A DNA stretch of 64,000 nt from Tahibacter aquaticus (GTDB lineage Bacteria; Pseudomonadota; Gammaproteobacteria; Xanthomonadales; Rhodanobacteraceae). Shown piece after piece: positions 3,298 to 53,232 of the stretch. Location: contig NZ_SNZH01000009.1 of assembly GCF_004363655.1 (NCBI RefSeq), positions 186,792 through 250,791 on the forward strand. Direction: 5' to 3'. A program made the position numbers and the translations under genes. The notes beneath the pieces were generated by a model that was not told the DNA's origin, did not search any database, and saw nothing but the letters and a program-made list of their open reading frames with translations. The first letter of the stretch is position 1. The number at the start of each line of letters is the position of its first letter.

Positions 3298-6200
3298 CCG
3301 ACCTGCCTGAAAAGCCTGCGGACACGCTCAAGAAGACATTCATCGCACTCAAGCGCGCGCAGGCGCGCGTCGAGGCACTCGAAGCGCGGCGCGCCGAACC
3401 GATCGCGATTGTCGGCATCGGCTGCCGGCTGCCGGGCGGCGCCGACAGCCCCGCTGCGCTGTGGGACCTGCTATGCCGCGAGACCGACACCGCGCGCGCT
3501 GTCCCCGCCGACCGCTGGCCGGAGCAGAGCTTCTACAGCCAGTCGGCCGATGCCTCGGGCCGCACCCACGCCGCGCGCGCGCATTTCCTCGATGGCCATG
3601 TCGATGCGTTCGACGCTCCCTTCTTCGGCATCTCGGCCAAGGAAGCGGTGGCGATGGACCCGCAGCAGCGGCTGCTTCTGGAGCTGGGCTGGGAAGCCCT
3701 TGAGGACGCCGGGATCGATCCGGCCTCGCTGCGCGGCACGCCGACGGGCGTGTTCGTCGGTATTTCGAGCGACGACTACGCCCAGGCGCACCGCCATTCG
3801 GGACGGCTCGATCTGATCGACGGCTATTCGCTCACCGGCACCTGCCTCGCGCCGGCGGCCGGGCGGATGTCCTACACCTTCGGCTTCGAAGGGCCGAGCA
3901 TGGCGATCGACACGGCATGCAGCTCATCGCTGGTCGCCGTGCATCTCGCCTGCCAGAGCTTGCGCAGCGGCGAGACCGACGTCGCGCTGGCGGCAGGGGT
4001 TAACCTTATCCTTTCGCCGGTATTCCACATTGCCTCCTCCAAGCTCGGCACCATCTCGCCGGACGGACTGTGCAAGACCTTCGACGCCTCGGCGGACGGC
4101 TATGGCCGCGGCGAAGGCTGCGGCGTGATCGTGCTCAAGCGGCTGGCCGACGCTCGCACCGATGGCGACCGCATCCTCGCGGTGATCCGCAGTTCGGCCG
4201 TCAACCAGGACGGCAAGAGCAACGGCCTGACCGCGCCCAACGGCCTCGCGCAGGAGCGCGTCATCCGCGAAGCGCTCGATCGCGCGGGGCTGGCGCCCGA
4301 AGACATCGGCTATATCGAGGTGCATGGCACCGGCACGTCGCTCGGCGATCCGATAGAAGTCGAGGCGATCGGCCGTGTCCAGGCCAGCCGCCCCGCCGAT
4401 CGCCCGGTCGTGCTCGGCACGGTCAAGTCGAACATCGGACATCTGGAGGCTGCGGCAGGCATCGCGGGCCTGATCCGCGCCGTCGAGATTCTGCGCCGCG
4501 GCGAGATTCCGGCGCATCTGCATCTGGACAATCCCAGCCCGCACATCCCCTGGGGCGCCTATCCGTTCGAGGTCCGCACCGAGCGCAAGGCATGGGTCGG
4601 CGAAGGACCGCGCCGCGCCGGCGTCAGCTCTTTCGGCTTCAGCGGAACAAATGCACATGTGATCCTGGAACAGGCGCCCGAGGCCGCGCCTGCAGTTGCC
4701 GCCCAGGCAGTTGCCACGCCTGCCGTGGCCGAGTCGGGACCGGTGCTGCTGCCGCTTTCCGCGCGCACCGCAGAGGGGCTGGCCGAGCTGGCCGCGCGCT
4801 GGCGCGACTGGCTTGCGGCAGGTCATGCGCCGCTGGCCGATGCCGCGGCCACCGCGGCGGCGGGGCGCAGCCATCTGGCGCAGCGGCTGGCAGTGGTCGG
4901 CGCGGATACGCAGGAAGTCGCGGCGGCAATCGCCGCGTTCCTGGACGGCAAGCCGGCGCGCAACCTGGCGAGCGGCAGCGCCGGTACGAGGCCCAAGATC
5001 GCCGGCCTGTTCACCGGCCAGGGTTCGCAATATCCAGGCATGGGCCGCGATCTCTACGACAGCGAGCCGGTGTTCCGCGCGACGATCGATGCCTGCGATG
5101 GCGCGATCGGTGACCGGCTCGGCAAGCGGCTGCTCGACCTGCTCTACGGCGCAGACACCAGCGATGCCGAATTGCAGCAGACCGGCTTCGCCCAGCCGGC
5201 GATTTTCGCGGTCGAACTGGCGCTCTATCGGCTGTGGGAAAGCTGGGGCGTAGTGCCCGATCTCGTCTGCGGGCACAGCATCGGCGAATTTGCCGCGGCG
5301 CATGTCGCGGGCATCCTCGGCTTCGAGGACGCAATCGACCTGGTCTGCGCGCGCGGACGGCTCATGCAGAGCCTGCCGGCAGGCGGGACCATGGCGGCGG
5401 TTTTCGCCAGCGAGAGTGTGGTCGCGAGCATGCTCGCGCCCGGCAGTGGCGTCTCGATCGCGGCCGTCAACACGCCCAACGATGTGGTGGTCTCCGGGCC
5501 CGAGACGGCCGTCGCCGAACTGGTAGCGCGGCTCGCGGCAAGCAGCATCGGCGTGCAGTCCCTGCGCGTGTCGCACGCGTTTCATTCGGCGCTGATGCGC
5601 CCGATCGTGGCCGAGTTCGCGAGACTCGCCGAACGTCCGGCAGGAGAAGCAGTACTGCCTTTCTTCTCGACCGTTTCCGCGGCGCGCATGGCGCCGGACA
5701 AGCTCGGCGCGCGGTATTGGGGCGCGCAGATCGAAGCGCCGGTGCGTTTCGCGGCGACGGCGCAGGCGATGGCGGCGGAAGGCGCGACCGTCTTCCTCGA
5801 ATATGGCCCCGCGGCAGTGCTCGCCGGGCTGGCGCGGCAGTCGGTCGAGGGCGAAGGGCTGCAGTTCCTCGGCTCGCTGCAGCGCGGCGGCGACGGGCGG
5901 CGCGCGATGCTCGGCAGTCTTGCGCGGCTGTATGCCCAAGGACTCGATCCCCACTGGAAGGCCGTGGTCACACCGGCGCGCGCCGGGCGTGCCGCGATCC
6001 CGACCTATCCGTTCCAGCGCAAGCGCTACTATCGCGCGCCCATCGTCGATGCCGGTCGCCATGCGGGTGCCGCGGGCGCGGCAAGCGGCGGACATCCCTA
6101 TCTCGGCCAGCGCATCCATTCGCGCCTGCTGCCCAAGGGCGCGGCGCTGCACCAGGCGCTGTTCACCGCGGAAAATCCCGCGTTCCTCGTCGAGCACCAG

Positions 6201-9200
6201 ATTTTCGGCAAGATCATCTCGCCGGCCGCAGCGCATCTGTCGATGGCGTTCGCTGCCGCGGGCGGCGGCGCGAGTCTGGAAGATGTGTCGTTCACTGCAC
6301 CGCTGGTGGTCGACGCCGAGGCCGCGCGCATCGTGCAGCTCGCAATCGAAGGCGACGGCGTCGGCTACAGCCTGGCGAGCCAGCCGGTGGACAAGCCCGG
6401 CGATGTCTGGACCGTGCATTCTGCCGGGCGCATCGCCGCACCCGCCACTGCACCCGAGGCGCTGGATCTGGCGGCCATCCGGGCGCGCTGCTCCGGCACG
6501 ATGGCTCCGGCCGATTTCTATGCGCTGATCGAGACGCTCGGCTACCGGACCGGAGCGCATTTCCAGTGCATCCGCGAGATCGCCAAGAGCGCGGGCGAGG
6601 CCTTGTGCAGGATTGTCGCGGTCGACGCGATCGATGCCGGTGCGATCCACCCCGGATTGATCGATTCGATGCTGCAGACCGTGCTGCCGGCCTGCGAGAG
6701 CGATGCCGCGCACATGCTCGACGGCGAGAGTGTGCTGATTCCGCTGCACATGGCGCAGGTGGCGATTCACGGCAGCCTCGATCAGCCGCTGTGGTGCCAC
6801 AGCCGGGTGGCGGTCGCGGGCGAACTCGTCAAGGCGCAGCTCACCGTGTGCGATGAAGCCGGCGTGCCCGTACTCGCGATCGGCGACTTCCTGCTCAAGC
6901 GCACCGACCGGGCGACGCTCTACCAGGAGCTGGGCGATGGCGATCGCGCACTGGTCCATGCCATCGACTGGCAGCCCATCACGCTGGCCGCGCCCGCAGC
7001 GGCGCCGGACGGCTGGATCGTGTTCGCTGACCAGGATGGCTGGGGCAGCGCCGTCGCTGCACGGCTGCTGCAGTCGGCGCTGCCGTGCCTCGAACTGAGG
7101 CGCGGCGAGGCGGAACCGGCCAGGTTCGCCGAGGTCGCGACCGCCTGGGCGGCCGGGCACGGCGTCGAGCGTGCCAACATCCTGTTTGCCTGGGGCGGCG
7201 CTGGCGCCGATCCCGAGGCCGAGACCTGCGGGACGCTTGCGGCGCTGCTACCCGCGGTGCAGGCGCTGGGCAGCGGCACAACGCCGCTGCGCGCGCGGCT
7301 GTGGCTGCTCAGCCGGCAGGTCCAGCAGGTGGTGCCCGAAGATGGCGGCGCTGCGCTGCCGCTGCTCGACGGCGGGGCGCTCTGGGGCATGGGCCGCGCG
7401 ATCGCCAACGAAATGCCGCATATCTGGGGCGGGCTGCTCGATGTCGAGGCGAAGCCCAGCGATGCCGGCGCCGCGGCGATCGTCGCCGCGGCACTGAGTC
7501 CCGCGGGCGAGGATCAACTGGCGATCCGCCGCCATGGCCAGTGCTTCGCCGCGCGGCTGGTACCCGCCGTACCGGCGCCTGCGCTGCCCGAGCTGGGCGA
7601 AAGCGAGCGCTATCGGCTCGACAAGGGACCGCGGCGCACCCTCGACGATCTGCGCTTCGAACGGCTTGCGCGCAGCGCGCCGCGTTCCGGCGAAGTCGAG
7701 ATCGAAGTGCTCGCGGCGGGGCTCAATTTCCGCGACGTACTCAACGCACTCGGCCAATATCCGGGCGAAGCCGGGTTGCTCGGCTTCGAGGCCGTCGGAC
7801 GCGTGACCGCGCTGGGGCCCGATGTCGCCGGGCTGGCGATCGGCGACAGCGTGATCGCGCTCGCCGCACCAGGCTGCATCGGCAGCCATGTGACGGTCAG
7901 GCGCGCGCTGGTGGTGCGCAAGCCCGAGGCGCTGAGCGCGGCCGAGGCCGTGGCTCTGCCGGCGGCGCTGCTCACTGCCTATTACGCGCTGCATCATCTG
8001 GGCGGCATCAAGGCCGGCGACCGGGTGCTGATCCACGCCGCGGCCGGCGGCGTCGGCATGGCGGCGGTGCAGCTCGCGCTCGCCGCGGGTGCTGAAGTGT
8101 TTGCCACTGCCGGTGCGCCCGAGAAGCAGCAGTTCGTGCGCGACATGGGCGTTGCGCATGTGATGAGTTCCCGCACGCTCGACTTCGCCGATCGGATCCG
8201 CGCGATCACCGGCGGCCGGGGCGTCGACATGGTGCTCAATTCGCTCAGCGGCGACTTCATTACCGAAAGCTTCGGCGTACTCGCAGCGGGCGGGCGCTTC
8301 CTCGAAATGGGCAAGATCGGCATCTGGGACGAGGCGCGTGTGCAGGCGCAGGATCCGAGCTGGGTCTATCGCCCGTTCGACCTCGCCGCCGTCGCACTGG
8401 AAGATCCGGCGACGCTGGTGGCCATGTTCGACGGGCTGCTGGAGGAAGTGGCGGCCGGCCGGCTGGTGCCGCTGCCGGTCACGGTCTTCCCCATGGCCGA
8501 TGCCGAACAGGCGTTCCGTTTCATGGCGCAGGCGCGGCATATCGGCAAGATCGTCCTCAGCCGCGAGCAAGAATCGCGGCGCACACGCCTGGCAACGCGG
8601 GGCGTACATGGCGACGCGCACTATCTGATCACCGGCGGGCTAGGCGCGCTCGGGCTGCGCGTGGCGCAGCGGCTGGTGGAGGAGGGCGCACGGCACCTGG
8701 TACTCAGCGGCCGCCGTGGCCCGGGCGAATCGGCGCGTTCGGCAATCGCCGAACTCGAAGCCGCCGGCGCGCGCGTGACCATCGTCGAGGGCGATGTCGC
8801 CGTGGCGGACGATGCGGCGCGCATGGTCGCAGCGGCGTCCAGCCCACCGCTGGCCGGCGTGATCCACGCCGCAGGCCTGCTCGAAGACGGCATGATTGCC
8901 GATCTCGATGCCGACCGGCTGGCGCGCGTCCTGGCGCCCAAGGTGGCGGGCGGGTGGAATCTGCATCGCGCGACCGAGACGCTGGACCTCGATTTCTTCC
9001 TGCTCTTTTCCTCGGTCGCGGCGATCATCGGCAACCTGGGGCAGGGCGCCTATGCCGCAGGCAACGCCTTTCTCGACGGCCTCGCCAGCTGGCGCCGCCG
9101 GCGCGGGCTGGCGGCGACCAGCCTCAATTGGGGGCCCTGGGCCGAAGCAGGCATGGCGGCGGCGCTCAAGAATGATCGTTTCGCCGCGATGGGCATTCGC

Positions 9201-9776
9201 CAGCTCGCTCCGGCGCAGGGACTGCGCACGATGCTGCGGCTGATCGGCGAGTCGCCGATGCAGGCCGTGGTGGCGGAAATCGACTGGGCCGCCTATGGCA
9301 GGGCGCAGGGAATCGCCGGCGGCAGCGGACTTTTCGCCGCCGTGGTGGACGCACCGGACGCCGCTGCCACCGCGTCCGCCGAGGGGCCGGCCGCGCGCGA
9401 CATCCTGGCCGAGCTTGCGGCTGCGCTACCCGCGCAGCGCGAGGGCGTGATGCGCACTTATCTGCAGGAACTGGCGCGCCAGACGCTTGGCTATGGCCGC
9501 GGCGAGACGATCGCCCCGGACAAGCCGCTCGCCGAGCAGGGCTTCGACAGCCTGATGTCGGTGGAGATGCGCAATCGGCTCAATCGCGCATTGGGGCGCA
9601 AGCTTGCGGCATCCTTGCTGTTCGACTATCCGACGCTGGACCGCATCGGCCGGCACCTGCTCGACAGCCTGCTGCCAGCCGAGGTGGCCGCCGCCGCGCC
9701 GAGTGCGGCGGACATCCTCGACGAGATCGAGAGCCTGATCGGGCGATCGTCCGTGCACACCGCGGCGGAATCGTAG
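3294..9776 (+). CDS. Type I PKS, fully reducing KS-AT-DH-ER-KR-ACP (PKS2)
   Basis: A 2160-residue complete reducing module. An N-terminal helical docking-like segment is followed by: KS (about 35-460, Cys209 in TACSSS); AT (about 560-890, Ser662 in GHSIGE, with HAFH at 761-764, the malonyl-type signature); DH (about 930-1210, His968 in an HxxxGxxxxP motif and a DSMLQ motif); ER (about 1440-1750, nucleotide loop GGVGMAAVQ near 1582); KR (about 1770-1960, ITGGLGALG and catalytic Tyr near 1919 in [10 protein letters not shown]); ACP (about 2050-2125, Ser2086 in GFDSLMS). All active-site residues I can check are present, so the module should add a fully saturated two-carbon unit. It may act iteratively or serve PKS1 in trans (inference). 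It overlaps PKS1 by four bases and abuts the transporter gene. His and Tyr codons are strongly biased to CAT and TAT, unlike the PUFA genes further right. Confidence 0.95.
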
Positions 9777-11420
9777 GTGCCACAGACACTGCTATCGCTG
9801 CTCGCACGCGAAACCGGCGACATCCGGCGCGATCTGCTCATCGCGCTGCTGATCTCGGCTGCAGCGAACACCGGAATCCTGGTCATCATCAACCAGGCTT
9901 CCGCCTCGGCCGCCGAAGGGGTGGGCGACCTGCGCCTGCTGGGCATGTTCATCGTGGCGATGGCGCTCTACGTGGTCGGGCTGCGCTTTACCTTCGGCGT
10001 AGCCACGCGGGCGGTCGAGAGCATGCTCGCGCAGATTCGCCAGCGTCTCATGCGGGGCATTGCGCATGCCGATCTGCTGGCGCTGCGCCGGCTGCGCGAA
10101 GGACGCCTGCTGCAGTCGATCTCGCAGGACACGATCGTCATTTCCGAATCGCAGGGGCTGCTCGTGGCGGCCGCGCACTCGGCGCTGATGGTGGCGATGA
10201 CCGGCGTCTACGTACTCACCGTGTCCTGGCCGGCTTTCCTGATCGTGGTCGTGGTGATCGCTGCGGGCGCAGTGCTCTATCTCGCCCGCAGCAAAGAACT
10301 CGATCAGCTTGCCGCGCGCAGCTCGCGGCTGGAAGCCAGTTTCCTCGGCAAGATGAGCGACATGATCAAGGGGCTGCCGGAAGTGAAACTGAGTACCGCA
10401 CGGCGCGAGGCGCTGCTCGGCGAACTCGATGGCGTCGGCCAGGAGTTGTGCGAGGTGAAGGTGCGCACCACCAGCGTGTACAACGCCAATGCGATCTTCT
10501 CGCAGTCCTTTTTCTACGCCCTGCTCGCCGTGATCGTGTTCGTGCTGCCGGCGCTGATCGACAGTTTCGCGCCCCAGGCGCCGAAACTGCTTTCCTCGGT
10601 ACTTTTCATCTTCGGGCCGCTGTCGACGCTGATCACGGCAGTGCCATCGATCGGCCGCGCCGACCGCGCGGCGGCGTCGCTGCTCCAGCTCGAAGCCGAG
10701 ATCGGGCGCGCCGGAACACCGCCGCCCGCGCCCGGGCCGGTGCCCAGGCCGCTGGGCATGACCCAGGCCATCGAGTGCCGCGGGCTGCAATTCCACTATC
10801 CCGGTGAAGCGGGCGAGACCTTCAGCATCGGACCGATCGACCTGAAGCTGCCCCAGGGCGAGATCGTGATGTTCGTCGGCGGCAACGGCAGCGGCAAGAC
10901 CACGCTGCTCAAGGTGATCGCGGGACTGTACAAGCCCAGCGCAGGCCAGCTGCTGTTCGATGGCAAGCCCGTGCCGCCGGACGGACAGCAGCGCCAGCGC
11001 GAAACGTTCGGCGCGATCTTCAGCGATTTCCACCTGTTCCCGAAGCTCTACGGTATCGAGGCGGACGATGCGGCGATCGCGGCCGAGTTCGAGGCGATGC
11101 GCCTGACCGACAAGCTCAGTTATTCCGAGGAGGGCTTCTCGACGCGCGACTTGTCGACCGGCCAGCGCAAGCGCGTGGCGATGGTCGTCGCCATGCTGGA
11201 GAACCGGTCTATCCTGATCTTCGACGAATGGGCCGCCGAGCAGGATCCCGAATTCCGTGCGCATTTCTACGAGGAACTGCTGCCGAGGCTGAAGGCGAAG
11301 GGCAAGACGCTGCTCGTTGCCACTCACGACGACCGTTATTTCGACATCGCCGACATGGTGGTGAAAATGGAGCTGGGCCGTCTCGTCTCGACGCAGCGGC
11401 GAGGAGAGGCCAAGTCATGA
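9777..11420 (+). CDS. Cyclic/lipopeptide export ABC transporter (fused membrane and ATPase domains)
   Basis: A 547-residue half-size exporter of the SyrD/PvdE-like peptide transporter family. The N-terminal part (about 20-310) has several long hydrophobic segments, expected to be six membrane helices. The ATPase domain has Walker A GGNGSGKTTL near 369-378, signature LSTGQRKRVAM near 459, Walker B ILIFDEWAAEQDP near 478 and a switch histidine in LVATHDDRYF. It starts at a GTG immediately after the PKS2 stop with no spacer, so translation is coupled. Family knowledge: these proteins move nonribosomal peptides or siderophore precursors from the cytoplasm to the periplasm. In this context it most likely exports the lipopeptide to the periplasm, where the signal-peptide-bearing hydrolase at 14408-16297 could act on it. 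Confidence 0.93.
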   Translation: MPQTLLSLLARETGDIRRDLLIALLISAAANTGILVIINQASASAAEGVGDLRLLGMFIVAMALYVVGLRFTFGVATRAVESMLAQIRQRLMRGIAHADLLALRRLREGRLLQSISQDTIVISESQGLLVAAAHSALMVAMTGVYVLTVSWPAFLIVVVVIAAGAVLYLARSKELDQLAARSSRLEASFLGKMSDMIKGLPEVKLSTARREALLGELDGVGQELCEVKVRTTSVYNANAIFSQSFFYALLAVIVFVLPALIDSFAPQAPKLLSSVLFIFGPLSTLITAVPSIGRADRAAASLLQLEAEIGRAGTPPPAPGPVPRPLGMTQAIECRGLQFHYPGEAGETFSIGPIDLKLPQGEIVMFVGGNGSGKTTLLKVIAGLYKPSAGQLLFDGKPVPPDGQQRQRETFGAIFSDFHLFPKLYGIEADDAAIAAEFEAMRLTDKLSYSEEGFSTRDLSTGQRKRVAMVVAMLENRSILIFDEWAAEQDPEFRAHFYEELLPRLKAKGKTLLVATHDDRYFDIADMVVKMELGRLVSTQRRGEAKS

Positions 11421-11471: not shown

Positions 11472-12362
11472 GTGTCCGACGAAACGCTGCCGCCGCTCAC
11501 TGCCTCGCGCGAAAGCCGCGTCGATACAGGGGTCGCTGCCTATCTGGGCGTTTCCAAGCGCCGGTTCCGCCTCTGGGTGAGCGGATTGCTCGCCGTGCTG
11601 CTGCTGCTGCTGCTGTGGCACCGCATCTTCATTCCGATCGGCTCGGGCGAATCGGGCGTGCTTTGGTCGCGCCTCGGCGACGGCACGATCATGGATCGGC
11701 GCTATACCGAAGGCTATTGGATGATCTGGCCCTGGAACCGGATGGCGGTCTACGACCTGCGCTACCAGGAAATGCATGGCAAGGCCGATGTGCGGACCAG
11801 CGACGGGCTGCATGTGGCAATGGACGTGACCATTCGCTATCGCCCGCGCGCCGACGACCTGCCGATGCTGCACCAGGCCGTGGGTCCGCGCTATCGCGAG
11901 ACCGTGCTGTGGCCCGACACGATCGCCGCACTGCAGCAGATCGTGGGCGGCTTCAAGCCCGAGGAGCTGACCGTGTCTGGCGAGACCGATCTGGCCCAGC
12001 GCGTCGAGGCCCTGGCGCGCAGCTCGATCGAGCGGCGCTGGGTCGATCTGGATCGCGTGCTGATCACGCGCGTCACCTTGCCAGAGCGCGTACAGGTGCA
12101 GATCCAGGAGAAGCTGGCCGACGAGCAGAAGCTGCTCTCTGCAAACCTGAAGCGGCAGACCTGGTCGATCGAGGCCGAGGGTGCGCGCGAATTCCAGGCC
12201 CGCAGCGGTACTCCGCTGGTCAAATGGCGCAGCATCGACGCGCTGGAAAAGCTCGCGCAATCGCCCAACGCCAAGGTGGTGGTGCTGGGCGGCGGCAAGG
12301 AGATGCCCTTCGTTCTGGATGCCGGATCAGTCGAAACCAAAGGCGTCGAGAAACAGCCCTAA
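11472..12362 (+). CDS. Membrane-anchored SPFH/band-7 (prohibitin-like) protein
   Basis: A 296-residue protein with a short cytoplasmic N-terminus, one strong membrane segment (about 34-53, rich in Leu) and an SPFH/band-7 domain (about 55-230). Typical features are the strand after the helix (GESGVLW), repeated beta strands, and a helical region with ALARSSIERRW followed by a charged stretch (QIQEKLADEQKLL). The GTG start at 11472 is preceded by GGAG. Family knowledge: SPFH proteins form membrane-associated rings that organise membrane microdomains or regulate proteases (HflK/HflC, stomatin). As the last gene of the PKS/transporter operon it might organise the export machinery or protect the membrane from the lipopeptide; this is inference. 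Its last 36 bases overlap the convergent asparagine synthetase gene. Confidence 0.85.
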   Translation: MSDETLPPLTASRESRVDTGVAAYLGVSKRRFRLWVSGLLAVLLLLLLWHRIFIPIGSGESGVLWSRLGDGTIMDRRYTEGYWMIWPWNRMAVYDLRYQEMHGKADVRTSDGLHVAMDVTIRYRPRADDLPMLHQAVGPRYRETVLWPDTIAALQQIVGGFKPEELTVSGETDLAQRVEALARSSIERRWVDLDRVLITRVTLPERVQVQIQEKLADEQKLLSANLKRQTWSIEAEGAREFQARSGTPLVKWRSIDALEKLAQSPNAKVVVLGGGKEMPFVLDAGSVETKGVEKQP

Positions 12363-14183
12363 GGTCAGCACGAGCATCAGCACATCGGTGTCGAAGGTCG
12401 CGTTGGGGCGTGCGCCGCCCTGCATTTGTTGCGCGCGCAGCCGCTGCACCGTATCCGCGTCGAAGATGTTCTGCCGGCGGATCGTCTCGGGCGAAAGCAG
12501 TTCTTCCACCCAGGGAATGCGCTGCTGCAGCAGATAGGCGGCGCCAGGCGCCACGAAGCCGAACTTCTCGCGCCGTGCCAGCTCCGGCGGCAAGTGGCGC
12601 AGTGCGACCTGGCGCAGCAGCCATTTCTCGGTACCGTCGCGCACCAGCAGGCCGGGCGGAACTCGCGTCATGAAGTCGATCAGTTCGGCGTCGAGGAACG
12701 GATAGCGCGCCTCGACCGAATGCGCATAGGCAACACGGTCGCCATGATCGGCAAGCAGGTGATCGGCCATGCGCAGCTTGAAATCGGCATACGAGCGCTG
12801 GTGCAGCCGGTTGCGCCCGATCATCCGTGCATGATCGACCGCGGGTTCGCGCGTTGCGTCGAAATCGGCGAGCCGCGCGGCGACGTCGGCGCTGTACAGG
12901 CCCGACTTGGTTTCGCGGAACAGCGCATAGTCGCGCTCGTAGAAGAAGCCCGCATCGCCCCAGAGTTCGGCGCGCAGCTCGTCTTCGAGCATCGCTTCCA
13001 GTCCCTCGGCCACGCCCCGCGGTTCGCCGGCGGCATCCAGGCGATAGCCGACATAGCCGCCGAACAATTCGTCGGCACCTTCGCCGGTCAGCACCACCTT
13101 GTGCCCGCTGTCGCGCACCAGCTGCGAGAGCGCGAGCGAGCAGGTGTCGTAGGACTCCTTCAGCGGCGCCTCGGCGGCGACCACCGCGTCGCGTAGCCGG
13201 CGCGCGATCTCGTCGGCGGAGAATTCGATTTCGTGATGGACAGTGCCGAGTGCCGCCGCCATCGCCCGCTGCGGGGCGCGCTCGTCGATCGTCGCATCGG
13301 GGAAAGTGATCGAGAAACTGTGGAACACTTGGTCGGGCGCGGCCTTGCGCGCCAGCGCGCCGATCAGGCTCGAATCGAGCCCGCCGCTGAGATAGAGCCC
13401 GACTGGAACATCTGCCGCGAGCCGGCGCGCGACCGCAGCGCGCAGCAAGGCGTCGACCTGTTCGACATGGTCGCCGGCATCCGCGGGGGCGGGCGCCGGG
13501 TCGGTGGGATAGACCAGGTCCCAATACTGGCGCAGCCGCGTGCCCGACGCGTCGGCGACCAGCAGATGGCCTGGCGGCAGTGCCTCCACGCCTTCGAACA
13601 TCGTGGTCGGGCTGCGCATGCCGGGAAAGGTCAGGATCTGGTCGAGCGCGCGCAGGTTGAGGCGGCGCTCGATTTTCGGATGGGCGAGCAGCGCCTTGAT
13701 TTCGGAGCCGAACAGCAGCGCATCGCCGACGCGCGCGTGGAACAGCGGCGCGATGCCCGTCTGGTCGCGACCGAGAATCAGCCGGTGCGTGCGCGCGTCA
13801 TACAGCGCGAAGGCGAACTGGCCGTTGAGCCGGTTGGCGAAATCCAGCCCGTATTCCTCGTACAGATGCACCACCACTTCGACATCGCAGCGTGTGCGGA
13901 AGCGATGGCCGCGCGCCTCCAGCTGCGCGCGCAGCTCGCGGTAGTTGTAGATCTCGCCATTGACGATCGAGACGATCTCGCCCGTGGCGTTGCTGTGCGG
14001 CTGGTTGCCCGTCGCCAGGTCGATGATCGACAGGCGCGTGAACCCCATCGCCACGCCGGGGGCGGCGAAGTTGCCGCCCTCGTCGGGACCGCGGTGGCGC
14101 AGCGCCGCCGCCATGGCGGCGCACGCTGCGACTTGCGCCGGTCGCGAACGATCGGCGCTGAAGATTCCTGCAATGCCACACAC
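12327..14183 (-). CDS. asnB: Glutamine-hydrolysing asparagine synthetase homologue (AsnB family)
   Basis: A 618-residue two-domain amidotransferase. The protein begins MCGIAGIF, so Cys2, the glutaminase nucleophile, is intact after initiator removal. RHRGPDE, NGEIYNYRELR and GRDQTG are typical of the class II glutaminase half (1-210). The synthetase half carries the ATP-binding loop SGGLDSS near 262-268 and the conserved TGEGADELFGGY. It starts at a GTG (14183) with GAGGGTG upstream. It normally converts Asp and Gln to Asn and Glu. None of the adenylation domains in the neighbouring NRPSs shows the Asn code, so it may instead amidate the acyl chain or peptide, or make malonamyl-type starters as related enzymes do in some polyketide pathways (inference). 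The active glutaminase and the absence of a leader protease argue against a lasso cyclase. It lies downstream of the hydrolase gene on the same strand. Confidence 0.9.
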   Translation of the reverse strand: MCGIAGIFSADRSRPAQVAACAAMAAALRHRGPDEGGNFAAPGVAMGFTRLSIIDLATGNQPHSNATGEIVSIVNGEIYNYRELRAQLEARGHRFRTRCDVEVVVHLYEEYGLDFANRLNGQFAFALYDARTHRLILGRDQTGIAPLFHARVGDALLFGSEIKALLAHPKIERRLNLRALDQILTFPGMRSPTTMFEGVEALPPGHLLVADASGTRLRQYWDLVYPTDPAPAPADAGDHVEQVDALLRAAVARRLAADVPVGLYLSGGLDSSLIGALARKAAPDQVFHSFSITFPDATIDERAPQRAMAAALGTVHHEIEFSADEIARRLRDAVVAAEAPLKESYDTCSLALSQLVRDSGHKVVLTGEGADELFGGYVGYRLDAAGEPRGVAEGLEAMLEDELRAELWGDAGFFYERDYALFRETKSGLYSADVAARLADFDATREPAVDHARMIGRNRLHQRSYADFKLRMADHLLADHGDRVAYAHSVEARYPFLDAELIDFMTRVPPGLLVRDGTEKWLLRQVALRHLPPELARREKFGFVAPGAAYLLQQRIPWVEELLSPETIRRQNIFDADTVQRLRAQQMQGGARPNATFDTDVLMLVLTLGLFLDAFGFD

Positions 14184-14407: not shown

Positions 14408-16297
14408 CTAATTCGTCTGGAATTTCCAGGTGGGTCCGATCACCAGCGGCATGATCTTCTCGTCCGGGGCGACCGTGTCGACGCGCCAGTAGTAGGTCGT
14501 GTTGGGCTTGACTGCCAGCTCGGCGCTGACGCCACTCACCGTGCTGCGCTCGGTGCCCGGATGATGTTCTGCGCTGGCACTATCGACCGCGGCCTGGTCG
14601 GTGCCCCAGTAGACATCGTAGCTCTTGCCGTAGATGCGGCCTGCCTGCCATTTGACGGCGACCTTGCCGCCTTCGACGCGCGCCGCCTTGGCATCGCGCT
14701 CCGGCGACGGCGTGGTAACGGCTGAGCTGACCTGCGGCATGATGGCGTCGAGCATTACCGCTTCGCACTGGCCGGCCTCGGCGGTGGAGATCGCCGGGTC
14801 GCGCGGCAGCACGCAGGTGTCGTCCCAGGTGTTGGTCGCCAGTACGAACGAGGTCTGCTGGTCGTAGAAGTAATACAGCAGTGTCTTGTAGCCCGGGAAC
14901 GCGCCGCCGTGGCCGCGCGCGGTGCCATAGCTGCGTTCAGGCTGCATCAGGCCGCCCACGCCGTATTGCATCGGCTGCCAGCCGATATGGATGTCTGCCG
15001 AAACGAACGTGTACCACTTGTTCTTGGTGCCCTGGTTGAGCAGCGTGTCGGTGCGGAACATCGCATCCTCGAACTTGAGCAGGTCCCAGGGCGTGGAGAC
15101 GATCGCGCCGGCGGTCCAGGCATAGGTCGGGTTGGTGTCGGTGACATCGCACCAGTCGCTGTAGACCTGCGCCGGATAGGGGACGGAGCCCCATTTGGTG
15201 TAGCCGTGCATGGTCGGCAGATTCTTGGTGTCGGTCGCGAAATAGGTGTCCTTGAGACCGGCGACGTCGAACACTTCGCGCTTGATCACTTCCTCTGCGC
15301 TCAGCCCGGTGACTTTTTCGGCGATCAGGCCGAGCAGGATGTAATTGGTGTTCGAATAATCCCAGGCCGGATATTGCGGCGGTGCCGGCGGCGCGCTCGC
15401 GAATACCGAGATCCAATACGGATTGGGGTAGGTCGCGCCGGGTGCGAACGTCGGCGCCACGGGCGGCACGCCATAGGGTTTCTGATCCTTGGGCACGCCG
15501 GTGGTCGAGACGGCCGCGATCAGCTCCTCGGGTTTGAAACTGCGCTGCGGCGTGATCTGCGGCGAGAAGCCGACATTGTCCCAGCCCAGATAATTGGCCA
15601 CGCCGGACGTCATCTGCAGCAGGTTGGAAACAGTCAGGCTGCCGATGCCGGGAATGCCCTTCACCGTGGCGTTGTCGCCGAGATAGGTGAGCACCGGCGC
15701 GGTCAGCTGGATCTTGCCCTGCTGCTCCAGCCGCAGGATCGCCTGGGCCAGGAACGCCTTGCTCACGCTGCCGACGCGGAAATGCAGGTCGGGCGACATC
15801 GGCTGCTTGGTGGCGAGATTGGCGACGCCGCCGACGCCTACCCGTATGCCCCAGTCGGGCGAGCGCACGATGATCACCGCGCCGGGGATTCCGCCATTGG
15901 CCACCAGCGTGTCGATGGTCTTCTGCCAGGTCGCGGGGAAGGGGCTGTAGGGAATGGCATTGGAGCTGCGGCGCAGCAGCGCCTTCGCGCTCGTCGGCGG
16001 CGGCGGCTGGCACACCGCCGGCGGGTAGCCGATGGGAGTCGGCAGCGTCGGCGGTGGCGCGACCGCCGGGACCTGTTTCAACTGCCTCGTCGGCGCTGCC
16101 TCCTGGGCCGGCGCAGCTTCCTGGGCAGGCATCGCGGCCGTCAGCGTCGGTGGCGGCGCGGCCGCGGGGATTTGTTTCAACTGCCTCAGCGGTACGGTGT
16201 GCTGGGCAGGCGCTGGCGGCGCGGCCACACCCAGCGCAATCAGGGGCAGGGTGACAAGCACGGGATGGCGGAGTCGATTCCGGAAGCGGGTGTTCAT
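14408..16297 (-). CDS. Exported PBP/beta-lactamase-fold serine hydrolase, candidate lipopeptide release or maturation enzyme
   Basis: A 629-residue PF00144-type protein. A signal peptide (about 1-32, ending APPAPAQ) is followed by an Ala/Pro-rich stretch holding two near-identical repeats (RQLKQIPAAAPPPTL and RQLKQVPAVAPPPTL). The catalytic domain is at about 115-535: Ser177-x-x-Lys180 (SVSK), Tyr314-Ser-Asn316 (YSN) and His463-Gly-Gly (HGG). A C-terminal beta-sandwich resembling fibronectin type III (about 550-629) ends it. The ATG at 16297 overlaps the NRPS2 stop (ATGA), so the gene is translationally coupled to the last NRPS. Family knowledge: this fold includes D-aminopeptidases, esterases, the SurE-type stand-alone cyclase that offloads peptides with C-terminal D-residues, and the periplasmic ClbP-type maturases. 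NRPS2 ends in an E domain without TE, the usual context of the SurE type. The signal peptide, however, places this enzyme in the periplasm, where it would act after export. Confidence 0.88.
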   Translation of the reverse strand: MNTRFRNRLRHPVLVTLPLIALGVAAPPAPAQHTVPLRQLKQIPAAAPPPTLTAAMPAQEAAPAQEAAPTRQLKQVPAVAPPPTLPTPIGYPPAVCQPPPPTSAKALLRRSSNAIPYSPFPATWQKTIDTLVANGGIPGAVIIVRSPDWGIRVGVGGVANLATKQPMSPDLHFRVGSVSKAFLAQAILRLEQQGKIQLTAPVLTYLGDNATVKGIPGIGSLTVSNLLQMTSGVANYLGWDNVGFSPQITPQRSFKPEELIAAVSTTGVPKDQKPYGVPPVAPTFAPGATYPNPYWISVFASAPPAPPQYPAWDYSNTNYILLGLIAEKVTGLSAEEVIKREVFDVAGLKDTYFATDTKNLPTMHGYTKWGSVPYPAQVYSDWCDVTDTNPTYAWTAGAIVSTPWDLLKFEDAMFRTDTLLNQGTKNKWYTFVSADIHIGWQPMQYGVGGLMQPERSYGTARGHGGAFPGYKTLLYYFYDQQTSFVLATNTWDDTCVLPRDPAISTAEAGQCEAVMLDAIMPQVSSAVTTPSPERDAKAARVEGGKVAVKWQAGRIYGKSYDVYWGTDQAAVDSASAEHHPGTERSTVSGVSAELAVKPNTTYYWRVDTVAPDEKIMPLVIGPTWKFQTN

Positions 16298-19200
16298 GCG
16301 TGCTGTCCTTCTGTCGGTTGGGAAATACGCACCCGCGGCGATGGCGCTGCGGGTGTGCTCGAAATCAATTCGGCAAAGCGCCGGATCGCCGCAGGCGAAT
16401 CGCAGCGCGGCGTGTAGCGGATGGCGGCGGCCAGCCGGCCGCTGTTGCGCCACGCTTCGATCTCGATCGCGCGGGTGCGGCGCAGGCCCGTGACGACGAC
16501 GCCGGCAAGGCGGTCGCTGAGAGCGAAGGGGGCATCGGCGGCGGGATCGACGTCGCCGAGGTAATTGACGGCGATCGCGGGCTCGGCGGGCGCGAGCGGA
16601 TCGGTGGCGAGCCAGCGCAGCACGCTCCAGCCCACGCCCTGCGACGGCACGTCGCGCAGCGCGGCCTCGATTGCCGTGGGCGAAGCGCCGCAGGCGAGCC
16701 GGAACGGATATTCGGCCGTGAACCAGCCGACGGTGCGGCTGAGGTCGAGCGTGCCGCCTGGCACATGCCTGCCGTGACTCATCAGCGTGACGCACGCCTC
16801 GTCGCAGTCATCGCGGTCCGCCAGCGCCGGGCCCAGGCGCGCGAGCAGCGCTGCGAGCACGCCGCGTTCGGACATGCCGGCTGGCATCGGACCGAGGTCG
16901 AGGGTGACGATTTCAGTCTCGTCATAGCCATGTTCGGGCGCAGGCCACGACGGTGTGCGGGCGATGGATTTCCAATAGGCGCGTTCCCGCCCGACATCCG
17001 ACGCTGGCAGGGCCTGCGCCCAGTCGCGCCAGCTGGCGCTGACCGGCGGCGCGACGCCGACCAGCGCATCGGCCAGGTCTTCCAGCAGGATGCGCCAGCT
17101 CATCGCATCGACCAGCAGGTGGTGCGCCGCCAGCAGCAGATAGTCGCCGTCGTCGAGCCGGTACTGCGTCGCGACGAACAGCGGCGCGGCCCCGCCAGCA
17201 CCGCCCGGTGCATGCGCCTGGGCATCGGCAGCAAGTGCCGCCTTGCCAGCGCCGCGCAGATCGACACTGCGCCAGGCGAGCGGGGTAGCGGCAGGCTGGA
17301 TCTCGGCGCTCCAACCGGTTGCGCTGTGCGCGAAGCGCAGCCGCAAGGCATCGTGGCGCTGCCAGAGTGCCGTCACCGCTTCTTCCAGCGCCTCGGCCGA
17401 GCCCATGCGCAGCAGCACCTGGTGCGTCAGCCGCGCGCGGCCGTCGGGATCGGACTGGAAATGCCGAAGCTGGATCGGCGTGAGCGGGACCGGCCCCGCG
17501 ACCGAACTGGCCGGCGCCGCGGCGGTGCCGCTCCCCAGTCGCGCAATTGCGGCGATGCTGTCCGCTGCAAGCAGCGCGGGCAGCGTCAGTCCCATGCCCT
17601 CGCGCCGCAGTCGCGCAAGCAGGCGGATCGCGCGCAGCGAATCGCCGCCGCTGCTCGCAAAGCCGCTGTCCGGCGCATAAGGGCCACCGCCCAGGATCGC
17701 GGCAAAGGCGTCGGCGATACGCGCTTCCTCGCCTGTCAGCGCGCGCGCTGCCGGTGTCTGGCGGGTGTACAGGGCGGCCAGCGCGCGCCGGTCGACCTTG
17801 CCTGCGATGGTGGTCGGCAGCTCCGGCACTGGCACGACGGCGGCCGGGACCATCCAGCCGGGCAGCAGTTGCGCCAGCTGCCGGCGCAGCGCATCGCCAT
17901 CGATCGGTGCAGCGGCAACGACGAAGCCGATCAGCCGGCCCTGCACGACCGCCACCGCCGCCTGCACCACACCCGGCAGTGCGCGCAGCATGGCCTCGAC
18001 TTCGCCCAGCTCGATTCGGTGTCCGTTGAGCTTGATCTGCCCGTCGATGCGTCCGGCATAGAGGACCTCGCCGTCGCCGCGCAGCACGCCCGTGTCGCCG
18101 GTGCGGTAGAAACGCTCGCCGCCGACCTCGGGGAAACGCTCGGCGGTCAGTTCCGGCCGCCCGACATAGCCGCGCGCAAGCCCGTCGCCCGCCAGCCAGA
18201 TTTCGCCGGGCGCGCCCAGCGGCATGTGCCGGCCGCGGCGGTCGCGGATCGACATAGCTGTATTGGCGATGGCGCGGCCGACAGGAATGCCCTGGGCATA
18301 GCCGGCCTGCGCATCAATGCGGTGCCAGCTCGCGCAGACCGACGCCTCGGTCGGGCCATAGGCATTGAACGCGGCCAGCGTGCGCGCAAGGCGGCGCATG
18401 TCGGCACTGTCGGGTGGCTCGCCGGCGGTGATCAGCACGCGCACCGGGCCCAGCGAGGCCCCGTCGAGCGCACGCAGATACGAAGGCGGCAGCGTCGCGA
18501 CCGTGATCCGCTCGGCTTCGAGCAGGGCCAGCAAGGCCGCGCCATCGCGGATCGCCGCATCCGGGGCGATGACCAGCCGCGCACCGGCGAGCAGCGCCAT
18601 GAAAATCTCGGACAGCGATGCATCGAATGTGCAGGAGGCGAACTGCACCACCGAATCCCCGGGCTGCACGCCGAAGCCGTCGATCTGCGCAAGGATCATG
18701 TTGACGAAGCCGCGATGCGGCACCGCCACGCCCTTGGGCTGTCCGGTCGAGCCCGAGGTGTAGATGACATAGGCCACATCGTCGGGCGCGGCCGGTGAAG
18801 GCGCGCGCTCCACCGCGTCCGCACCCGCCAACGTGTCCGCGCGGGCAATGAGCGCGGCGAGACCCGGCGCCAGCGCTTCGGCGCGCGCCAGGCCGGCCGC
18901 GTCGGCGAGGACGCGCCGGCAGCCCGAATCCGCCAGCATCATCGCGATCCGCGCATCGGGGAGCGCAGGGCTGAGCGGGAGATAGGTCGCGCCGGCCTTG
19001 AGAATGCCGAGCAAGGCCACGATCCGCGCCGCGCTGCGCGCGCAGAGCAGCCCGACCACGTCGCCGCGGACTATGCCGTCGCCGCGCAACCGCGCCGCCA
19101 CGCCTTCGGCGGCACGGTCGAGCGCGCGGAAACTGAGCGCGACGCTGGCATCGGCGAGCGCGGGGGCGTCGGGCGTGCGATCGACCTGGCTGTGCCACAG

Positions 19201-20572
19201 CGACACCAGCGTCGCCGCGGCATCCCGCGCGATGGCCGGGCCGCGCGCAGCGGCATCGAGTTGCGCGCGCTCGCTGGCCGGCAGCAGGTCGATGTCGGAA
19301 AGCAGCGCGTCGGGCGCAGCGAGCAGCGCCGCCACCAGTGTTTGCCAGTGCGTCGCCACGCGCGCCATCAGCGCGGCGTCGATGCGGCTCGCATCGAATT
19401 GGAACGTGACGCGCAGCTCCGCGTCGTCATGCACGAGGATGCCGAAATCGTAGTTGGCGCGCTCGGCGGCATGCGTCGCCACCACCTGGAAGCCGGTGTC
19501 GGTCGCCGTATCGCCGGCGGGGAAATTCTCCAGTACGAGCAGATGATCGAGCAGCCCGGCCGGCAGCGCCGACGCCGCCTGGATCGTCGCAAGCCCGACA
19601 TGGTCGTACGCGCTGCCCGCGTCGGACTGCTGCTGCAGCCGGGCGAGCAGCGCGGCGAGCGTGTCGCCGTCTTCCAGCTGTACGCGCACCGGCAGCGTGT
19701 TGACGAACATGCCGACCAGCCGCTCTATCCCCGGCGTGGCGATGTTGCGTCCCGACGTGACAATGCCGAACACCACGTCGTCGCGCCCGCTCCAGCGCGT
19801 GAGGATCAGCCCCCAGATCGCCTGCAGCAGCACGCCCAGCGTCGCGCCGTTGCGCCGCGCCAGTTCGCGCAGCGCGCTGGAGTCGGGCGCGGGCAGCCGC
19901 ACGCCCTGTTCGGCCATCTGCGCTGGCGCGCCGCCGCGCGCCAGTCGGGGCAGCGTGGCGACCGTGTCATAGCCCGCCAGCAGCGTGCGCCAGTGCGGCA
20001 GGGCGGTTGCTTCGTCGCGCAAGGCCGCTTCGGCCATGAAGCCGTCCGGATCGGTCGCGGCTGCGAGCGCGGCGGGTGCGCCGCGCAGCGCCGCGGCATA
20101 CAGCGCCGTGAATTCCTCCATCAGCACCGCGCCCGACCAGCCGTCGAGCAGGATGTGCGGATGGCTCCAGACCAGCTCGAAACGCGCCGGGCCCAGGCGG
20201 AACAGCGCGACGCGGATCAACGCGTCCCGGCGCAGGTCGAAGCCGCGCGCGGCATCGGCCGCGCACCAGCCGGCGATGGCCGCGGCATCGGCGTCGCGCG
20301 CCTCGAATGCGACGCGCTGCTGCTTGAGCACGATCTGCAGCGGCTGCGCGGTGCGCTCCCAGTCGAACACCGATCGCAGCAGGGCGTGGCGTACGAGCAG
20401 GCCGTTCCACGCCGCCTCGCAGGCGGTGGCGTCGATCTCGCCGTCGATCTCGAAGCGCACCTGGCGGTGGTAGGGCGAGGCGCCGGGGGACTCAAGCTCG
20501 TGAAACAGCATCCCCGCCTGCAGCGGAGTCAGGCGATAGACGCGCTCGACGGCGTCGCGGGACAGGCTGGGC

Positions 20573-20580
<8 letters not shown>
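16294..20580 (-). CDS. NRPS terminal module C-A-T-E (NRPS2)
   Basis: A 1428-residue single module. C domain at about 10-440; its core motif reads PHILLDGWS, so the first His of HHxxxDG is Pro but the catalytic second His remains. A domain at about 470-950, with YTSGSTGQPKG near 603. T domain with Ser981 in SGGDSLRAI. E domain at about 1020-1420, with HHLLVDAMSW near 1150 and RTVGWFTAEYP. The specificity code read by alignment to GrsA is D-A-L-T-I-A-A-V-C(-K), close to Phe/Tyr-type pockets, so a D-aromatic residue is likely but not certain. No thioesterase or reductase follows the E domain. The ATG at 20580 lies inside the NRPS1 stop region (8-nt overlap); a longer upstream frame reading into NRPS1 is not needed. 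Its stop overlaps the hydrolase start by four bases. Confidence 0.93.
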
Positions 20581-35995
<15,415 letters not shown>

Positions 35996-36120
35996 TGCGC
36001 CCCCGGCGGACAAGCATCCAGGTCGAAAATGGCGTACATCGGACACGCGAAAGCGTGCCGCGATACCGGATCACAACGCGTGCGATCAGGCCCAGCACCT
36101 GGAACCTAGTCTCTGAATGG

Positions 36121-45399: not shown

Positions 45400-45457
45400 T
45401 TCCGCTCCAGCACGGCTATAACGGCGATCCTCTAAAATGCCACTGAGTGCCAGTTTT
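45392..45457. promoter_or_regulatory. Divergent control region with candidate TetR operators
   Basis: The 10-bp arms AGTGGCATTT (45392-45401) and AAATGCCACT (45435-45444) are exact inverted copies flanking the intergenic space. The segment 45434-45457 is itself an imperfect dyad (AAAATGCCACT and AGTGCCAGTTTT halves). Such paired dyads overlapping both divergent starts are typical TetR operators; the identity of the bound protein is inferred from position. Confidence 0.5.
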
Positions 45458-47099: not shown

Positions 47100-47234
47100 A
47101 TCCTCGCACCTGTGCTCGGCCGCGACGCGTCGTTGCGCCTCCTCGCCGTACTGCCAGTACGACTCGTCGGCGCGCCTGGATTCACGACCGATGCCGGGCG
47201 CGATCCCTTCAAGCAACTAACCGGACAGGACACT
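47073..47234. mobile_element. About 162-bp MITE-like element with inverted ends
   Basis: The left end AGTGTCCTGTCCG (47073-47085) and right end CGGACAGGACACT (47222-47234) are exact inverted copies, with similarity continuing inward for about 20 bases. The interior holds a further hairpin around CGTACTGCCAGTACG. There is no coding capacity. The left end supplies the last eight codons and stop of pfaD; the right end supplies the AGGA ribosome-binding site of pfaA. The size, ends and internal dyad suggest a non-autonomous transposable element. I see no clear target-site duplication and no second copy in the window. Confidence 0.65.
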
Positions 47235-47237
47235 CGC

Positions 47238-53228
<5,991 letters not shown>

Positions 53229-53232
53229 TCGC

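What the first reader, a model, noticed from the sequence alone, without database searches (positions are those of the whole stretch)
14408..20580. Assembly line ends in E domain with no TE; translationally coupled PBP-like hydrolase as release or maturation enzyme
NRPS2 stops after an epimerization domain, and the next gene overlaps it by ATGA and encodes a PF00144 serine hydrolase with SxxK, YSN and HGG. This is the context of SurE-type stand-alone cyclases acting on C-terminal D-residues. The protein nevertheless has a signal peptide, which would put a release enzyme on the wrong side of the membrane. It may instead be a periplasmic D-specific peptidase (ClbP-like in location) or a new topology for PBP-type offloading.
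Basis: partly seen in the sequence, partly recalled or inferred. Interest (0 to 1): 0.8.

Follow-up and report, generated by a model that had tools for sequence, protein, structure and literature searches.

The report
Exported D-peptidase-like enzyme beside TE-less NRPS
A bacterial peptide-making assembly line without the usual release enzyme is coupled to a gene for a secreted enzyme related to D-amino-acid-specific peptidases, which most likely trims or destroys the exported peptide outside the cytoplasm rather than releasing it from the assembly line.

Summary
The features are real. NRPS2 (16294-20580, minus) is C-A-PCP-E without thioesterase; the next gene (14408-16297) overlaps it by ATGA and encodes an S12 (PF00144) hydrolase with SVSK, YSN, HGG and an export-signal-like N-terminus. 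Pair, overlap and signal recur in a congener; the catalytic part is under purifying selection. Against SurE-type release: the enzyme looks exported; by profile and tree it belongs with alkaline D-peptidase and R61; an S12 gene with a signal-like N-terminus also follows an assembly line that has its own thioesterase. The premise of a C-terminal D-residue is weak: the terminal E domain lacks the Glu of EGHGRE (Met; Ala in the ortholog), while 12 of 14 E domains examined keep an acidic residue. In another order, a third such gene adjoins a TE-less, E-terminated NRPS with the same last-residue code. Best reading: an exported D-peptidase-like hydrolase acting on the product after transport, as maturase or self-protection.

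The parts
14408..16297 (-). Exported S12/PF00144 serine hydrolase, 629 aa: signal-like 1-31, P/A-rich linker with two RQLKQ[IV]PA repeats, catalytic domain 125-493, C-terminal part about 530-629 weakly FN3-like
16205..16297 (-). Export-signal-like N-terminus (n-region RFRNRLRH, hydrophobic stretch, APA|Q)
   Evidence: by hydropathy and eye, no trained predictor available
16294..16297 (-). ATGA: stop of NRPS2 overlapping start of the hydrolase, conserved in L009
15767..15769 (-). Codon of nucleophile Ser177 (SVSK); Tyr314 of YSN at 15356-15358; His463 of HGG at 14909-14911
16294..20580 (-). NRPS2: C-A(DASTIAAVCK, Tyr/Phe-like)-PCP-E, no TE
16780..16782 (-). Met1267 where E domains carry the catalytic Glu of EGHGRE (TLMSHGRH); Ala in the ortholog
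20573..36046 (-). NRPS1: KS-AT-ACP-AMT-C-A(Thr-like)-PCP-E-C-A(unassigned)-PCP-C-A(Phe-like)-PCP; its E domain keeps the Glu (codon 27383-27385)
12327..14183 (-). AsnB-type glutamine-dependent asparagine synthetase (TIGR01536 over cut-off), downstream on the same strand
9777..11420 (+). Cyclic peptide export ABC transporter (TIGR01194, 308.4 bits, cut-off 286.2): possible route of the product to the periplasm
1177..3297 (+). PKS: KS-ACP
3294..9776 (+). PKS: KS-AT-DH-ER-KR-ACP, possible maker of the acyl starter (inference)

Best explanation
The gene encodes an exported, soluble serine hydrolase of the alkaline D-peptidase/R61 branch of peptidase family S12, probably co-expressed with a hybrid PKS-NRPS. 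It acts on the finished peptide after release and transport to the periplasm, probably by the TIGR01194-type ABC exporter of the same cluster. It most likely cuts (or transacylates) at the carbonyl of a D-residue. The best predicted D-residue is D-Thr next to the beta-amino-acyl unit, because the first E domain looks intact; the last residue may not be D. The cut either matures the product or destroys product that returns (self-protection). It is not the enzyme that offloads the chain. Shown: gene overlap, conservation in one congener, signal-like N-terminus, catalytic motifs, subfamily. Inferred: export, periplasmic action on this product, the cut at a D-residue, and the choice between maturation and protection.
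For: ATGA overlap and signal-like N-terminus kept in the G303 ortholog; purifying selection on the catalytic part (0.14). Nearest solved relatives of the protein alone: alkaline D-peptidase 97.0 bits, a DD-carboxypeptidase 80.7, a Streptomyces S12 peptidase 77.1, R61 74.8; 6ksu (recalled as SurE) 36.8, ClbP 33.9, Ulm16 28.7. With a profile of the window, G479 and G706 enzymes: 243.8, 217.3, 189.8 and 194.2; D-amino acid amidase 139.2, ClbP 104.4, 6ksu 78.1. Tree: 23 of 48 rows, split 98/95, with R61, 3wwx and alkaline D-peptidase. A cyclic peptide exporter over its cut-off is in the cluster. S12 genes with signal-like N-termini adjoin assembly-line genes in two genera of one family of another order: G479 (12 nt before an E-terminated TE-less NRPS) and G706 (22 nt behind a KS-AT-ACP-TE gene). 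G706 shows that such an enzyme coexists with a canonical release domain. D-stereospecific peptidases are reported as strongly associated with clusters for D-residue peptides and cleave bogorol and tridecaptin (passage of PMC9231227).
Against: No other release enzyme was found for the TE-less line, so the hydrolase is the only hydrolase seen in the operon. The three NRPS-associated enzymes do not form one clade, so the association may be repeated recruitment or chance. Of 19 neighbourhoods opened, 12 have no assembly-line gene next to the S12 gene and 2 carry no annotation. Ortholog in only 1 of 7 other genus genomes. No NCBIfam family reached its cut-off for this protein (25 of 42 families shown). 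D-specificity is inferred from kinship only. The 32 signal codons show dN/dS near 1, too few to judge. The G706 N-terminus has no 19-residue window of 1.6 or more; its signal is read by eye.
Confidence: 0.55

Rival explanations
1. Ordinary secreted beta-lactamase-fold esterase or cell-wall DD-peptidase that happens to lie in the operon and has no role in this pathway.
For: The genome has 27 PF00144 places, several with signal-like N-termini by eye; it groups with R61, a DD-peptidase; 12 of 19 neighbourhoods of relatives lack an adjacent assembly-line gene; ortholog in 1 of 7 congeners.
Against: ATGA overlap with NRPS2 conserved in the congener; recurrence beside assembly lines in G479 and G706; of 21 own-genome paralogs in the tree, 20 fall outside its 23-row group and the 21st has a long, unsure branch.
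Confidence: 0.2
2. Periplasmic transpeptidase/cyclase: the chain leaves the line as a linear ester or amide (the AsnB-type enzyme could supply an amide), is exported, and the S12 enzyme closes the ring outside the cytoplasm, as R61-type enzymes do transpeptidation.
For: TE-less line; R61 is named carboxypeptidase-transpeptidase in the PDB; AsnB-type gene next in line; exporter of the cyclic peptide family.
Against: Would need an activated C-terminus, expected to be D, while the terminal E domain lacks its Glu; no precedent in the listings (capped lists); AsnB may simply supply Asn.
Confidence: 0.1
3. ClbP-like prodrug peptidase removing an N-acyl-D-residue cap.
For: S12 enzyme with export signal in a PKS-NRPS cluster with exporter; a predicted D-residue (Thr) close to the N-terminal acyl part.
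Against: No TM domain suggested; YSN instead of YxS/T; the line starts with KS-AT-ACP-AMT and a Thr-like module rather than an N-acyl-Asn module.
Confidence: 0.08
4. SurE-type PBP thioesterase that offloads the PCP-bound peptide, with the apparent signal not used.
For: Position directly after an E-terminated, TE-less NRPS is the SurE context; SxxK, YSN and HGG present; in G479 an S12 gene adjoins a TE-less NRPS with the same last A-domain code and an E domain that keeps its Glu.
Against: Signal-like N-terminus here, in the ortholog and in the two distant cases; no lipocalin-like domain recognised, C-terminal part only weakly FN3-like; weak similarity to 6ksu and Ulm16; the G706 line has a TE; the terminal E domain lacks Glu.
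Confidence: 0.07

Closest known systems
Alkaline D-peptidase / R61 DD-peptidase branch of peptidase family S12 (4y7p, 1cef, 3wwx)
   Same: SxxK, YSN and HxG motifs, best sequence scores and common group in the tree; secreted like R61 and alkaline D-peptidase (recalled)
   Different: Long P/A-rich N-terminal linker, a weakly FN3-like C-terminal part, an insert before YSN (alignment), and operon position after an NRPS
D-stereospecific resistance peptidases of NRP clusters (BogQ type)
   Same: Peptidase gene in a cluster predicted to make a D-residue peptide (PMC9231227 passage)
   Different: No direct sequence comparison was possible; BogQ is described as D-Orn/Lys-specific (PMC6095874 passage), which this cluster does not suggest
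PBP-type thioesterases (SurE, PenA, Ulm16)
   Same: PF00144 fold, gene next to an E-terminated TE-less NRPS
   Different: Signal-like N-terminus; no lipocalin-like domain recognised; 36.8 bits to 6ksu (recalled as SurE) and 28.7 to Ulm16 against 97.0 to alkaline D-peptidase
ClbP-family prodrug peptidases
   Same: S12 fold, non-cytoplasmic by signal, PKS-NRPS cluster with exporter
   Different: No C-terminal three-helix TM domain suggested, Asn in YSN, no N-acyl-D-Asn loading module

Membership tests
Peptidase family S12 / PF00144 | PF00144 over cut-off with SxxK and Y-x-N | tested here: met
   161.8 bits against 27; motifs
Alkaline D-peptidase/R61 branch | Groups with these enzymes rather than with other S12 enzymes | tested here: met
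   23 of 48 rows, split 98/95, with 4y7p, 1cef and 3wwx (root is midpoint only; SurE and ClbP not in the tree); ranking
Alkaline D-peptidase/R61 branch | D-stereospecific hydrolysis | not testable with these tools
   needs an assay
PBP-type thioesterase (SurE) | Stand-alone enzyme encoded with a TE-less NRPS ending in E | tested here: met
   but the E domain lacks Glu
PBP-type thioesterase (SurE) | C-terminal lipocalin-like domain (PMC11735501, passages) | tested here: inconclusive
   Pfam shows only PF00144 in the whole protein and a sub-cut-off match to PF16656 in the last 100 aa (E 0.026); no structure model
PBP-type thioesterase (SurE) | Acts in the cytoplasm on PCP-bound peptide (no export signal) | tested here: not met
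   Signal-like N-terminus here and in the ortholog; from sequence only
PBP-type thioesterase (SurE) | C-terminal D-residue of the substrate | tested here: inconclusive
   Terminal E has Met/Ala for the catalytic Glu
ClbP prodrug peptidase | C-terminal three-helix TM domain | tested here: not met
   Highest 19-residue hydropathy window after residue 60 is 1.26
ClbP prodrug peptidase | Ser/Thr two residues after the catalytic Tyr (position 188) | tested here: not met
   YSN, Asn316; rule from PMC9889268 passages
ClbP prodrug peptidase | Asn331 for D-Asn recognition | not tested
   ClbP sequence was not aligned here
ClbP prodrug peptidase | N-acyl-D-Asn loading module | tested here: not met
   Line begins KS-AT-ACP-AMT; first A code Thr-like
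D-stereospecific resistance peptidase | Cleaves the cluster's own D-residue peptide | not testable with these tools
   product unknown

The most novel reading that the evidence does not exclude
A TE-less assembly line in which the terminal E-family domain has given up epimerisation but stays under selection (dN/dS 0.24) as a release or docking domain, with the final ring closure or trimming done outside the cytoplasm by an exported S12 transpeptidase: offloading and cyclisation split across the membrane.
Probability: 0.07. Interest if true: 0.85.

Novelty: new variant of a known kind. Interest (0 to 1): 0.45.

Why it matters
It warns against annotating every PBP-like gene behind an E-terminated NRPS as a SurE-type cyclase: an export signal, the S12 subfamily and the state of the terminal E domain need checking first. 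S12 enzymes with export signals but no TM domain next to assembly lines, seen here in the window's genus and in two genera of another order, fall outside the published survey of prodrug peptidases, which required at least two TM helices (PMC9889268 passages), and could mark new periplasmic maturation or self-protection steps. How this line releases its product is an open, testable question.

Tried and rejected
SurE-type release: rejected as the leading reading because of the export signal, the subfamily, the TE in G706 and the Glu-less E domain. ClbP family: rejected on TM domain, YSN and loading module. Alternative internal start giving a cytosolic form: in-frame starts exist (codons 13, 24, 40, 56, 73, 95, 132, 141, 144), but the ATG at codon 1 has the AGAAGGA stretch and the overlap; TTG codons 40 and 73 were also flagged with a Shine-Dalgarno-like stretch, so this is not fully excluded. 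A hidden TE in the left flank: of five proteins scanned three match an SDR, a kinase and an ECF sigma factor and two match nothing. Ortholog hunt: 1 of 299 order genomes, the own one, at 1e-30; 2 of 8 genus genomes at 1e-15, own included; 4 of 369 class genomes at 1e-12, own included; 3 of 398 phylum genomes with the three-sequence profile at 1e-50, own included; with the G479 enzyme, 5 of 42 genomes of its order at 1e-25, G479 included. In the large samples at most three or four candidates per genome were scored. The automatic reading of A-domain codes was partly wrong and was replaced by reading printed segments by eye (for the second A domain); the positions of the ten-residue code and the Thr, Phe and Tyr assignments are recalled.

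Rows dropped: ORFs without a match at E 1e-5 to the three-sequence profile were left out of the tree, so 21 of the 26 other own PF00144 places are in it. Tree rows were chosen for similarity to the window protein or as own paralogs. SurE and ClbP are absent from the tree because their sequences were not printed in full in any output. In one search only rows over 90 bits were printed; rows without an HGR-type motif were taken as C domains and left out of the count of 14, except the L009 row, whose motif is; L047 repeats the domain of L039 and was counted once; two ortholog pairs are among the 14. The neighbourhoods of the nine IMG/VR loci and of most own paralogs were not examined.
Full report
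What is there. The window lies in a 7.27-Mb genome whose genus holds G303; the G303 contig that carries the pair matches record JAAFHE010000388.1, titled Lysobacterales bacterium, in length and place. On the minus strand an operon-like run reads NRPS1 (20573-36046), NRPS2 (16294-20580), the S12 hydrolase (14408-16297) and an AsnB-type gene (12327-14183). NRPS1 and NRPS2 overlap by 8 bases, NRPS2 and the hydrolase by ATGA. [quoted passage not shown] NRPS1 is KS-AT-ACP-aminotransferase-C-A-PCP-E-C-A-PCP-C-A-PCP; NRPS2 is C-A-PCP-E (E assigned). Codes read by eye with recalled positions are Thr-like (DFWNIGMVHK), unassigned (DVRHLALLAK), Phe-like (DAWTVAAVCK) and Tyr/Phe-like (DASTIAAVCK). The predicted chain is a beta-amino acyl unit, Thr (D if E1 works), X, Phe and Tyr/Phe.

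No thioesterase. Pfam found no PF00975 in the cluster genes scanned. The whole genome has four PF00975 places, all on other contigs.

The terminal E domain looks inactive. In the alignment to PvdL printed by HMMER the NRPS2 stretch TLMSHGRH stands against QLEGHGRE. The ortholog reads TLASHGRH. The HHxxxDG motif is HHLLVDA. Of 14 distinct E domains in the DNA I held, 12 keep an acidic residue there (11 Glu, 1 Asp); the two exceptions are this domain and its ortholog (the L076 motif is because the pattern caught another stretch). The profile used to find them was built from five Glu-bearing E domains, so odd E domains could be missed. A passage of PMC7551626 states that the His of HHxxxDG and the Glu of EGHGRE form the epimerisation active site. 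The domain is nevertheless retained: dN/dS 0.24 over 376 codons, against 0.19-0.23 for the other NRPS2 domains. The C domain of NRPS2 falls in a 10-row group (SH-aLRT 99) that holds all five C domains in the tree known to follow an E domain, and five that start a protein or contig, although NRPS1 ends without E. I cannot explain this.

The hydrolase. 629 aa; PF00144 at 125-493, 161.8 bits. SVSK at 177, YSN at 314, HGG at 463. The first 31 residues look like a Sec signal ending in APA|Q; the next part is Pro/Ala-rich with two RQLKQ[IV]PA repeats. The last 100 residues give only a sub-cut-off match to PF16656 (E 0.026; its FN3-like fold is recalled) and resemble a planctomycete protein (L010, 32% over residues 530-628). 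No hydropathy window after residue 60 exceeds 1.26. No NCBIfam family reached its cut-off; class C beta-lactamase, D-aminopeptidase and AmpH models are among the weak hits.

Conservation. In G303 the NRPS1 ortholog (85-97% by domain) and the NRPS2-hydrolase pair lie on two contigs. The hydrolase part available (248 codons aligned) has dN/dS 0.31: 0.14 in the catalytic part, 0.41 in the linker, about 1.0 in the 32 signal codons, too few to judge. Elsewhere orthologs were not found: 1 of 299 order genomes, the own one, 2 of 8 genus genomes, own included.

Relatives. Against solved structures the protein alone scores 97.0 bits with alkaline D-peptidase, 80.7 with a DD-carboxypeptidase, 77.1 with a Streptomyces S12 peptidase, 74.8 with R61, 36.8 with 6ksu (recalled to be SurE), 33.9 with ClbP and 28.7 with Ulm16. 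A profile of the window, G479 and G706 enzymes gives 243.8, 217.3, 189.8, 194.2, 78.1 (6ksu) and 104.4 (ClbP); Ulm16 is not among the 60 shown of 143. A 48-row tree puts it in a group of 23 rows with R61, 3wwx and alkaline D-peptidase (98/95; midpoint root); its place inside is not supported (87/53). Of 21 own-genome paralogs in the tree, one (long branch) is in that group. SurE and ClbP are not in the tree.

Other assembly lines. The last A domain has the same code as NRPS2, and that E domain keeps its Glu. On another contig G479 has the best match, outside the own genome, among 369 class genomes to the aminotransferase domain of NRPS1 (49%). It also holds a TE at the end of an NRPS-length frame on contig C133, so its pathway may be split. 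In G706, of the same family as G479, an S12 gene follows by 22 nt a KS-AT-ACP-TE gene (thioesterase E 4.5e-31) behind an NRPS with a Phe-like A domain before its E domain; its signal is read by eye, since no 19-residue N-terminal window reaches 1.6, and one window at residue 168 does. The three enzymes are not a clade, which suggests repeated recruitment or chance. Of 19 neighbourhoods of relatives opened, 5 have an NRPS/PKS-type gene as immediate neighbour (window, G303, G479, G706, and a Streptomyces plasmid, L023, convergent), 12 do not, and 2 records carry no annotation there. They were chosen for similarity and are not a random sample; contexts in unannotated genomes were judged by BLAST against the window's own domains only.

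Interpretation. If the enzyme is exported, as its N-terminus indicates, it cannot meet a PCP-bound chain in the cytoplasm. The exporter of the cluster gives the product a way out, where an S12 enzyme of the D-peptidase branch could cut it. Two known uses of such enzymes are prodrug activation (ClbP; PMC9889268, passages) and resistance peptidases associated with clusters for D-residue peptides (PMC9231227, passage). The enzyme fails three ClbP tests (no TM domain suggested, YSN rather than YxS/T, no N-acyl-Asn module). Its kinship fits a D-stereospecific peptidase, but specificity is untested, and cell-wall DD-peptidases are in the same group. [quoted passage not shown] none was recognised, but without a structure this is inconclusive. 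I put 0.55 on post-export processing or protection, 0.2 on a bystander, 0.1 on periplasmic cyclisation, 0.08 on ClbP-like cap removal and 0.07 on SurE-type release.

What remains open. The release step of this line; the role of a retained, Glu-less E domain; the identity of residue 2; the role of AsnB; whether the hydrolase is made with NRPS2. In the listings I saw no paper on an exported PBP-like hydrolase as an NRPS release enzyme. Those lists were capped (20 of 507, 20 of 4,457, 6 of 6, 20 of 36, 15 of 22, 15 of 3,461, 12 of 28, 12 of 12), show titles and starts of abstracts, and the library lacks most subscription papers, so this is no proof of absence. Of the papers named here I saw passages only, none in full.

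Noticed in passing
window 16780-16782 and 17119-17121: Terminal E domain of NRPS2 lacks the catalytic Glu (Met; Ala in the ortholog) while keeping the His of HHxxxD, yet is under purifying selection like the rest of NRPS2.
   Followed up: yes
window about 19258-20547: The C domain of NRPS2 groups with C domains that follow E domains, although NRPS1 ends without one; its motif reads HPHILLDG instead of HHxxxDG.
   Followed up: partly
window 45447-59514: A separate cluster of PUFA-synthase-like genes (NMO/FabD-insert protein, KS-AT-ACP-KR-DH, KS-FabA).
   Followed up: no
window 12327-14183: AsnB-type gene in an NRPS operon in which no A-domain code was read as Asn; role unknown.
   Followed up: no
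L112 (Gloeocapsa sp. PCC 7428 plasmid): An S12 hydrolase of the same branch lies a few genes from an AMP-binding/PKS and TonB siderophore-receptor cluster.
   Followed up: no
L023 (Streptomyces sp. NBC_01006 plasmid): An R61-like serine hydrolase gene sits 22 nt from a convergent condensation-domain gene.
   Followed up: no
L078 4318-12261 (G479 C75): NRPS with an FkbH-like region by eye after the first C domain (no Pfam hit for it), between an S12 gene and a TolC-like gene.
   Followed up: partly
window 14408-16297, residues about 37-85: Two copies of RQLKQ[IV]PA...APPPTL in the linker of the hydrolase.
   Followed up: no
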